Assembly: GCA_030592845.1 (NCBI GenBank)
Contig: JAUVII010000009.1
Coordinates: 1 to 39,574, forward strand
Direction: 5' to 3'
DNA length: 39,574 nucleotides
Origin: Candidatus Krumholzibacteriia bacterium
Lineage (GTDB): Bacteria > Krumholzibacteriota > Krumholzibacteriia > LZORAL124-64-63
The position numbers and the translations under genes are program-made. The number at the start of each line of letters is the position of its first letter. Position 1 is the stretch's first letter. Of the stretch, positions 16,864-19,262 are shown piece after piece. The notes beneath the pieces are model-generated. The model ran no database searches and was not told where the DNA came from. It saw nothing but the letters and a program-made list of their open reading frames with translations.

Positions 16864-18561
16864 ATGAGCAAGAGAATCGTCGTAGATCCCATCACGCGCA
16901 TCGAGGGCCACCTTCGCATCGACGTCGAAATCGACGGCGGCAAGGTGACCAAGGCCTGGTCGTCGGGGCAGATGTGGCGGGGAATTGAAAATATCCTCAT
17001 CGGCCGCGACCCGCGCGAAGCCTGGCTGTTCACGCAAAGGTTCTGCGGGGTGTGTACGACCGTGCACGCCATTGCATCGGTCCGGGCCGTGGAGAACGCC
17101 GTCGGCGTGGAGATCCCCCTCAACGCCCAGCTGATCCGCAACCTGATCGTGTCGGCCCATGCCATGCACGATCACATCGTGCATTTCTTCCACCTGTCGG
17201 CGTTGGACTGGGTGGACGTGGTGTCGGCGCTCGACGCCGATCCCAAGGCCACCGCCAAACTGGCTCAGTCGCTCAGCCCCTGGCCGCGCAACAGCATCCA
17301 GGAACTGACGGCGGTCAAGGACAGGCTGGCCGGCTTCGTGGCGCGGGGGCAGCTCGGTCCCTTCGCCAACGGATACTGGGGTCACGAGGCCATGAAGCTT
17401 CCGCCGGAGGTGAACCTGCTGGGGGTCCACCATTACCTGCAGGCTTTGGACTATCAGCGCAAAGCCAACCAGGTCGTGGCGATTCTCGGTGGCAAGACGC
17501 CGAACATCCAGAACCTGGCCGTCGGCGGGGTGGCCAACGCCATCAACCTGGACAACCAGTCGACCATCAACATGAACACCCTGTTCAACATCAAGAACCT
17601 GCTGGACGAGATGACGGCTTTCGTCAAGGACGTCTACCTGACAGATGTCTGCGCCATCGGGGCGATGTACCCCGAATGGCTGGGCTACGGCGCGGGGGTC
17701 GTCAACTACCTGGCGGTGCCGGACCTGCCCACCGACGTTGCGGGCACACAGTTCGATCTGCCCGGCGGCACGATCATGGACGGCGACCTGAGCACCTACA
17801 AGGCGATCACCAACTTCGAGGACAAATACTTCGCCGACAACATTGTCGAGGGTATTTCCCACTCGTGGTACGAGGGAGACAAGGAACTCCATCCCTACGA
17901 GGGCGAGACGATCCCGCAGTACACCGAGTTCCAGGACGACGGCAAGTACTCCTGGATCAAGTCCCCCCGGTTCCAGGACCGGGTCATGCAGGTCGGACCG
18001 CTGGCTCAGGTGCTGGTCGGTGCGGTGAGCGGCCACGAGCCCACGGCGCGCTGGCTCAAGTTCGCCACCGACCTGGCGGGCAGTGTGGCGGGCATCCCGA
18101 TCAAGACCGAAATGCTGCACTCGACCCTGGGCCGCCATCTGGCCCGGGCCGTGCGCACGGCCGTGATCTGCGAGAAGGCCCAGGAGCACTGGAAGCTGCT
18201 GGTGGACAACATCGCTTCGGGCGATACGGACACCTTCAACGAGCCGGTGTTCAGCGGGCTGCAGATGGGTTACGGTTTCCACGAGGCCCCGCGCGGTACG
18301 CTGTCGCACTTCGTGGTCATCGAAAACGGCAAGATCAAGAACTACCAGGCCGTGGTGCCGTCGACCTGGAACGCCGGGCCGCGGGACGCCAAGAACCGGC
18401 CGGGGCCCTACGAGGCTTCGCTGGTGGGCAATCCGATCGCCGATCCGGAAAGGCCGCTGGAAGTTCTGCGCACGATCCATTCCTTCGATCCTTGCATTGC
18501 TTGTGCGGTGCATGCTCTTGATGTCGAGGGGAACGAACTTGGGTCCGTGCGAACGCTTTGA
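16864..18561 (+). CDS. hybC: [NiFe] hydrogenase large subunit
   Basis: L1 motif RFCGVCTTVHA, L2 motif DPCIACAVH, followed by a 15-aa C-terminal extension ALDVEGNELGSVRTL. Confidence 0.96.
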   Translation: MSKRIVVDPITRIEGHLRIDVEIDGGKVTKAWSSGQMWRGIENILIGRDPREAWLFTQRFCGVCTTVHAIASVRAVENAVGVEIPLNAQLIRNLIVSAHAMHDHIVHFFHLSALDWVDVVSALDADPKATAKLAQSLSPWPRNSIQELTAVKDRLAGFVARGQLGPFANGYWGHEAMKLPPEVNLLGVHHYLQALDYQRKANQVVAILGGKTPNIQNLAVGGVANAINLDNQSTINMNTLFNIKNLLDEMTAFVKDVYLTDVCAIGAMYPEWLGYGAGVVNYLAVPDLPTDVAGTQFDLPGGTIMDGDLSTYKAITNFEDKYFADNIVEGISHSWYEGDKELHPYEGETIPQYTEFQDDGKYSWIKSPRFQDRVMQVGPLAQVLVGAVSGHEPTARWLKFATDLAGSVAGIPIKTEMLHSTLGRHLARAVRTAVICEKAQEHWKLLVDNIASGDTDTFNEPVFSGLQMGYGFHEAPRGTLSHFVVIENGKIKNYQAVVPSTWNAGPRDAKNRPGPYEASLVGNPIADPERPLEVLRTIHSFDPCIACAVHALDVEGNELGSVRTL

Positions 18562-18569
18562 CCGCAGGA

Positions 18570-18671
18570 GGGTCGGAGTAGCACATGCACATGCGCACGC
18601 GGCGCGATGTCCTCAGCCTGCGGCCTGCGGATTACGCGCCGCGTGCGCATGTGCATGTGCTACTCTGACCC
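18570..18671. repeat. Long inverted repeat / foldback hairpin (37-nt arms, 28-nt loop)
   Basis: Arms 18570-18606 and 18635-18671 are reverse complements except one G/T position (18575/18666), which can wobble pair. Confidence 0.93.
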
Positions 18672-18704: not shown

Positions 18705-19262
18705 TTGAACCCTGACAACATCAAGACCGCGCCCATTGGGGTGTTTGGGCTGGGGAACGTTTTAATGGGGGACGACTCGCTTGGGCCTACGGTTGTTGCC
18801 CACTTGTTGGCGGGGTATGAATTTTCGGATGCAGTGGTGGTGGAGGATCTGGGGACACCCGGGTTGGATCTGCATCCCCATCTGGCGGGACGGCAGAAGC
18901 TGATCCTGGTGGATGTGGTCAAGTCCGAGGGGGATCCGGGCGAACTGAAGTTGTACGGCAAGGATGAGATCCTGCGGCACGCGCCGGGGGTGCGGGTCAG
19001 CCCGCACGATCCCGGGGTGAAGGAAGCCTTGCTGGCCCTGCAGTTCGCCGGCGACGATCCCGGTGAGATCCTGCTGGTCGGTGTCATACCCGGCAAGATC
19101 GGGCACGCTTTGGGCATGACCGATGCGTTGCGCGCCGCGGTGCCGGCGGCCGAAGCCGCGGTCCTCGAGGAATTGGCTCGATGGGGCCACGCGGCGGTGC
19201 CGCGGGAGCCCCGCGGCGAACCCGATCTCTGGTGGGAAAAACCGGGAGGCACCGATGGGTAA
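18705..19262 (+). CDS. hybD: Hydrogenase maturation endopeptidase (HybD/HyaD family)
   Basis: GVFGLGNVLMGDDSLGPTVV, VVVEDLGTPGLDL, LILVDVVKSEG, SPHDPGVKEALLAL; TTG start after SD AAGGAG. Confidence 0.9.
   Translation: MNPDNIKTAPIGVFGLGNVLMGDDSLGPTVVAHLLAGYEFSDAVVVEDLGTPGLDLHPHLAGRQKLILVDVVKSEGDPGELKLYGKDEILRHAPGVRVSPHDPGVKEALLALQFAGDDPGEILLVGVIPGKIGHALGMTDALRAAVPAAEAAVLEELARWGHAAVPREPRGEPDLWWEKPGGTDG

What the first reader, a model, noticed from the sequence alone, without database searches (positions are those of the whole stretch)
18570..18671. Near-perfect 37-bp foldback hairpin between the hydrogenase large-subunit and maturation-protease genes
Seen: GGGTCGGAGTAGCACATGCACATGCGCACGCGGCGCG (18570-18606) pairs with CGCGCCGCGTGCGCATGTGCATGTGCTACTCTGACCC (18635-18671); 36 Watson-Crick pairs plus one possible G-U, 28-nt loop with a direct repeat (cctgcggcctgcgg). 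It has no U-tract, so it is not a standard intrinsic terminator, and it is far longer than the terminators elsewhere in the window. Inference: either a small non-autonomous palindromic (REP/MITE-like) element, or an mRNA processing/stability hairpin setting hybC versus protease expression.
Basis: partly seen in the sequence, partly recalled or inferred. Interest (0 to 1): 0.75.

Follow-up and report, generated by a model that had tools for sequence, protein, structure and literature searches.

The report
Self-matching DNA hairpins with shared cap
The hairpin is real and belongs to an apparently undescribed bacterial family in which every copy has the same small tip but its own long stem, whose two halves seem to be copied from each other in the DNA, and which sits just after genes where the transcription stop signal normally lies.

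Summary
The hairpin is real: 37-bp arms (36 Watson-Crick, one G-T) and a 28-nt loop. The loop motif GTCCTCR-[variable inner stem]-CTGCGGA caps hairpins in 30 of 38 genomes of the host's family (Candidatus Krumholzibacteriota; up to 32 per genome), in none of 42 other genomes of the class, and 16 distinct times in one Oligoflexia assembly. I analysed 114 host-family copies. Stems are 15-90 bp and differ at every locus, yet the arms match each other at about 97%. In a motif-blind scan of 1.08 Mb, all five strongest hairpins carried the cap. Caps lie about 38 nt after stop codons of diverse genes; cap-less orthologues often carry ordinary terminators there. Mismatches show no preference for G-U over A-C, orthologous arms change together, arms run into coding sequence, and caps flip or disappear between sister species. 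I infer that one arm is repeatedly copied from the other in DNA, anchored at the cap, and that the hairpin acts as a gene-end element. At hybC it lacks a T-tract and sits inside the operon, so partial termination or mRNA protection is likelier there. It is not a REP/MITE, and no Rfam family matches. The cap-recognising factor is unknown.

The parts
16864..18561 (+). [NiFe]-hydrogenase large subunit gene (hybC-like) whose 3' end the hairpin follows
   Evidence: Pfam PF00374, E=2.8e-218; gene call
18570..18606 (+). left arm, 37 nt, locus-specific sequence; starts 8 nt after the hybC stop codon
18607..18634 (+). conserved cap ATGTCCTCAGCCTGCGGCCTGCGGATTA
   Evidence: recurs in relatives and in an Oligoflexia assembly
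18609..18615 (+). 5' near-invariant cap strand GTCCTCR (here GTCCTCA)
   Evidence: each position 112-114 of 114 identical, R = G 81 / A 33
18616..18624 (+). variable inner mini-stem GCC-TGC-GGC; covaries among copies or is absent
   Evidence: columns 31-39 and 32-38: 10 and 12 two-sided changes, no one-sided
18625..18631 (+). 3' near-invariant cap strand CTGCGGA
   Evidence: each position 110-114 of 114 identical
18635..18671 (+). right arm, 37 nt, reverse complement of the left arm
18705..19262 (+). hydrogenase maturation protease gene (HycI/HybD family), downstream in the same direction
   Evidence: Pfam PF01750, E=3.7e-19

Best explanation
The window hairpin is one member of a family of gene-end 'capped palindromes'. 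Shown: a near-invariant cap, 5'-GTCCTCR-[inner stem, free in sequence and length]-CTGCGGA(T)-3', sits at the tip of a long, almost perfect Watson-Crick stem whose sequence is different at each locus. It lies about 38 nt after stop codons of functionally diverse genes, mostly in sense orientation, in the slot where orthologues often have an ordinary terminator. Inferred: (1) the cap is the functional recognition or folding element; (2) the arms are made and kept perfect in DNA, because a hairpin nucleated at the cap lets a 3' end fold back and copy one arm from the other (intrastrand template switching, perhaps helped by a factor that recognises the cap); (3) in the transcript the hairpin marks the 3' end. 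Copies with a T-rich right arm probably act as bidirectional intrinsic terminators. Copies without one, such as hybC inside its operon, more likely cause partial termination or block 3' exonucleases, so that the structural subunit is made in excess of its protease.
For: Family: strict cap pattern in 14 of 57 relatives against one match in the reversed-pattern control; covariance model in 30 of 38 family-f1 genomes and 0 of 42 others in the class. Cap linked to long stems: 5 of 5 hairpins with score >=25 in 1.08 Mb carry it, and a capless genome (G030) has none. DNA-level arms: within arms G-U 77, A-C 83, transversion mismatches 108, and 16 against 25 where no convergent gene lies near; the Oligoflexia copies give 11 against 12. 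Within-hairpin arm identity is 97% against 43% (ungapped) between orthologues; paired changes outnumber single ones, 8:4, 8:0, 17:2 and 13:1 in four close pairs, 3:3 in the window pair. Right arms contain antisense copies of the gene end and stop codon. Cap flips and cap-less palindromes at orthologous sites. Gene-end role: stop-to-cap distance 12-57 nt in 89 of 98; 52 sense against 7 antisense where only one gene end is near; T-runs of >=6/8 in the right arm in 25 copies, A-runs in 2; ahpC and ackA orthologues without the cap often show short terminator-like hairpins.
Against: No expression data exist, so termination and mRNA protection are untested. Some loci have an apparent ordinary terminator further downstream, so the capped hairpin need not be the main terminator there. 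Selection on RNA pairing could also produce paired changes; the G-U/A-C test pools related copies. Ordinary template switching does not explain why only capped hairpins become long. No cognate protein was found: Y1 transposase and reverse transcriptase do not track the hairpins. Gene calls come from a simple codon-usage caller written here.
Confidence: 0.6

Rival explanations
1. A purely RNA-level element: an intrinsic terminator or 3' stabilising hairpin with a protein-binding apical internal loop, whose stem stays complementary by selection and compensatory mutation.
For: Conserved internal loop with covarying inner stem, gene-end position and sense bias, T-rich right arms, replacement by ordinary terminators in orthologues.
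Against: Stems of 30-90 bp are longer than termination needs; A-C mismatches are as common as G-U; arms extend into coding sequence as exact antisense; other terminators of these genomes have short arms.
Confidence: 0.25
2. A mobile element whose transferable unit is only the cap (about 26-28 nt); on arrival at a gene end it builds its own arms by inverted duplication of the flanking target sequence. (Compatible with, and a stronger form of, the best explanation.)
For: The same cap with unrelated arms at many genes; patchy occurrence, one of 60 class members of a distant phylum but 16 distinct copies there; right arm equals antisense of the gene end; presence or absence at orthologous hybC, ackA and ahpC ends.
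Against: No transposase, HUH enzyme or reverse transcriptase correlates; many sites are shared by several genera, which looks like old residents; no clean empty and filled pair in near-identical strains was found.
Confidence: 0.27
3. A REP/REPIN or MITE family moved by a RAYT (Y1) transposase or another IS.
For: Small palindromes, multi-copy, extragenic, at 3' ends, sometimes in converging pairs.
Against: Arms are not repeated, no family-specific stem or GTAG-like tag, Y1_Tnp absent from G000, G020 and G008, which are rich in copies.
Confidence: 0.04
4. Assembly or amplification artefact (fold-back chimera).
For: Perfect palindromes can be chimeras, and contigs often end at them.
Against: Same cap in many independent assemblies, orthologous hairpins with paired substitutions, strict position relative to stop codons.
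Confidence: 0.01

Closest known systems
Intrinsic (Rho-independent) transcription terminators
   Same: Gene-end hairpin in sense orientation; part of the copies have a T-rich 3' arm; alternates with ordinary terminators at orthologous genes.
   Different: A near-invariant cap, arms of 15-90 bp instead of the short arms seen in capless orthologues, arms running into the CDS, many copies (including the window's) without a T-tract.
REP / REPIN / BIME elements with RAYT transposases (PMC3116915, PMC2817692, PMC3733652)
   Same: Short palindromes, extragenic, often at 3' ends, implicated in termination and mRNA stability.
   Different: REPs repeat their palindrome sequence and carry GTAG/CGTC-type tags; here the stem is unique per locus and only the tip is shared; no associated Y1_Tnp.
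Quasi-palindrome correction by intrastrand template switching (E. coli reporters, PMC7202029) and perfect palindromes of nematomorph mitochondria (PMC6649704)
   Same: Arms become or stay perfect by copying in DNA; template switching is the proposed route.
   Different: Those have no conserved cap; here long palindromes were found essentially only with the cap.
Cis-acting structured RNA motifs of the Rfam type
   Same: Conserved internal loop, covarying helices.
   Different: No Rfam family matches at gathering score; the outer stem varies completely among loci and shows no G-U excess.
Integron attC sites (from memory)
   Same: Gene-proximal 3' foldable sites with conserved parts and variable rest.
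   Different: attC conserves the outer ends and varies the tip; here it is the reverse. A lead from memory, not a test.

Membership tests
REP/REPIN (RAYT-mobilised palindromes) | palindrome sequence itself repeated among copies | tested here: not met
   arms unrelated between loci; only the cap is shared
REP/REPIN (RAYT-mobilised palindromes) | Y1_Tnp/RAYT gene in the genome | tested here: not met
   0 matches in G000, G020, G008, G011 and most other copy-bearing genomes tested
REP/REPIN (RAYT-mobilised palindromes) | extragenic location, often 3' of genes | tested here: met
   cap about 38 nt after stop codons; arms partly enter the CDS
Intrinsic terminator | stable hairpin close after the end of the transcription unit, in sense | tested here: met
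   for the window the next operon gene follows 33 nt downstream
Intrinsic terminator | T-tract directly after the stem | tested here: inconclusive
   T-rich stretch (>=5 of 8) inside the right arm in 47 of 114 copies; absent in the window copy
Intrinsic terminator | causes transcription to end in vivo | not testable with these tools
   no RNA data
Known Rfam RNA family | match at or above a family's gathering score | tested here: not met
   0 matches for the window and 12 hairpin loci; only sub-threshold generic miRNA-precursor hits
MITE / non-autonomous IS derivative | terminal inverted repeats shared among copies | tested here: not met
   no shared arm sequence
MITE / non-autonomous IS derivative | target-site duplication | not tested
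   no clean empty and filled pair in near-identical strains was available
Template-switch-maintained palindrome | arms change together without wobble intermediates | tested here: met
   (statistical, not experimental)

The most novel reading that the evidence does not exclude
The cap alone is a minimal mobile or self-propagating DNA element, spread across phyla, which builds and continually rewrites its own palindromic arms by copying the host DNA next to it, and has been adopted as a gene-end signal.
Probability: 0.27. Interest if true: 0.92.

Novelty: new variant of a known kind. Interest (0 to 1): 0.8.

Why it matters
Bacterial palindromic repeats known so far share their stem; here only the tip is shared, and the stem is private to each locus but nearly perfect. 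That makes a natural test system for DNA arm-to-arm copying (template switching) in bacteria, points to an unknown factor recognising a 14-position cap, and describes a gene-end element in about four fifths of the examined genomes of one uncultured bacterial family and in one distant assembly. It may also explain contig breaks at these sites.

Tried and rejected
Plasmid search with the whole hairpin gave only weak partial hits. Searches with the bare cap gave 23-nt exact plasmid matches, but these lack palindromic arms and the GGA end (TGCGGGC), so they were rejected as chance. Viral contigs: the first pattern found nothing; later cap patterns got no answer from the server, so viral carriage is untested. 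Y1_Tnp and RVT_1 as cognate enzymes: no correlation with hairpin presence. Genes between paired hairpins are ordinary genes, not transposases. The covariation shuffle test on non-orthologous copies is not evidence of evolution by substitution in the outer stem, since the arms are not homologous between loci; the orthologue comparison is used for that instead. The low-scoring Rfam miRNA matches are generic long-hairpin noise. My first arm-pairing script used a register off by one and was redone. The motif-blind scan covered only parts of three genomes plus the window.

Full report
Observation. The hairpin is as described: arms 18570-18606 and 18635-18671, 36 Watson-Crick pairs and one G-T, loop 18607-18634, no T-tract. 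It folds at -110 kcal/mol, z = -11.4, and is the only strong hairpin in the window. It lies 8 nt after the stop codon of a [NiFe]-hydrogenase large subunit (PF00374) and 33 nt before a HycI-type maturation protease (PF01750), inside an operon with small subunit, ferredoxin-like and NrfD-like genes.

The conserved part is the loop. Searching the hairpin in the host genome and 56 relatives gave one full-length orthologue (G002) and dozens of matches to the loop only. Aligning those matches shows that each loop is flanked by its own, different, long palindromic arms. The strict pattern GTCCTCN{8,18}TGCGGATTA hits 14 of 57 genomes, up to 13 times each, while the reversed control pattern gives one match in all. 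A covariance model from 26 copies finds the element in 30 of 38 genomes of the host's family, up to 32 per genome, and in none of 42 genomes of seven other families of the class. Relatives' record titles place the host in Candidatus Krumholzibacteriota. The consensus over 114 copies is GTCCTCR ... CTGCGGA, each position 110-114 of 114 except R, which is G 81 / A 33 (detection allowed one mismatch, so this is slightly biased). The inner stem between the two strands is free: it covaries, and ranges from absent (GTCCTCGTTCCTGCGGA) to long.

Outside the phylum. One Oligoflexia assembly (VK_bin-3925) carries 16 distinct hairpins with the same cap, again with private arms and covarying or missing inner stems; none was found in 59 other members of its class. 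The distribution is therefore patchy across phyla, though it rests on one metagenome assembly.

Cap and long stem go together. A motif-blind search for hairpins in 1.08 Mb (window, parts of G020, G014, G030) found five with score >=25, and all carry the cap. G030, which lacks the cap, has none; shuffled DNA has none. Arm length over 114 copies: median 36.5, range 15-90; the first 20 pairs are perfect in 68 of 104 long-armed copies.

Position. A coding ORF of at least 80 codons ends within 150 nt before the cap in 98 of 114 copies; stop-to-cap distance is 12-57 nt in 89 of 98, median about 38. Where only one gene end is near, 52 copies are in sense and 7 in antisense. Upstream genes are diverse: by sequence they look like ahpC, ackA, rpoC, infB, gatD, RNase E/G, htrA, gltA, ispG, folE and hydrogenase (names are my reading, only the window genes were scanned against Pfam). 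At ahpC, twelve genomes have a capped hairpin in sense, one in antisense and one a half-lost copy; cap-less orthologues mostly show short terminator-like hairpins there. HybC has the cap only in G000, G002 and G009; G028 and G034 have a short GC hairpin with T-run, and G032 has none. T-runs (>=6 of 8) occur in the right arm of 25 copies and A-runs in 2. Because a palindrome reads the same on both strands, this fits bidirectional terminators but does not prove direction. The window copy has no T-run and the next gene follows at once, so full termination there is unlikely.

Arms are kept equal in DNA. First, imperfect pairs are not biased to G-U: 77 G-U, 83 A-C, 108 transversion mismatches; in copies with no convergent gene nearby 16 against 25; in the Oligoflexia 11 against 12. 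Selection on RNA pairing should favour G-U. Second, between orthologues the arms keep only 43% ungapped identity from the cap outward (unrelated pairs 30%), while the two arms of one hairpin agree at 97%. Third, in closer pairs positions change on both sides more often than on one: 8:4, 8:0, 17:2, 13:1; the window against G002 gives 3:3. Fourth, many arms run into the coding sequence, and the other arm is an antisense copy of the last codons and stop codon. Fifth, sister species show cap inversions (ispG; the locus of L119 against L511) and long or short palindromes without a cap at the same site (L507, L518, L515). Intrastrand template switching is an established way to perfect palindromes in E. 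coli (PMC7202029) and was proposed for nematomorph mitochondrial palindromes (PMC6649704). What is new here is that it appears tied to a conserved cap.

Enzyme. Neither Y1_Tnp/RAYT nor reverse transcriptase tracks the hairpins. The recognising factor, if any, is unknown. Rfam has no match.

Verdict. A new family of gene-end capped palindromes. Shown: existence, conservation of the cap, private and near-perfect arms, gene-end position, patchy occurrence. Inferred: arm copying in DNA at the cap, and terminator or 3'-protection function. Open: whether the cap is mobile, and what binds it.

Noticed in passing
G023:C183:2786-4318 and G014:C1:1789372-1790892 (loci L389, L388): A second hydrogenase large-subunit homologue (39-40% identity) is read through one in-frame TGA, possibly a selenocysteine-containing [NiFeSe] enzyme.
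   Followed up: no
downstream of hairpins in L119, L121, L302; many places in G001 and G002: A dispersed repeat containing a GC palindrome with a T-run (such as GAGATGCCCCCCGGGGGGCACTTTTCGC) recurs in the genus, possibly a second repeated terminator family.
   Followed up: no
G080:C8, G080:C198, G027:C102, G001:C160: Contigs often end at capped hairpins, so these palindromes seem to break assemblies and copy counts are lower bounds.
   Followed up: partly
L120, L293, L301, L313: A recurrent sub-type of the inner part, GTCGC...GC(A)TCC, appears in several genera and may be a second internal loop.
   Followed up: no
L141 about 2020-2051 (G008:C12:161619-161650): A cap without palindromic arms, about 30 nt after a signal-peptidase-like gene; it could be a remnant or a new arrival.
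   Followed up: no
L433 (G026, ahpC 3' end): A half element: left arm and start of the cap kept, right half replaced by other sequence.
   Followed up: partly
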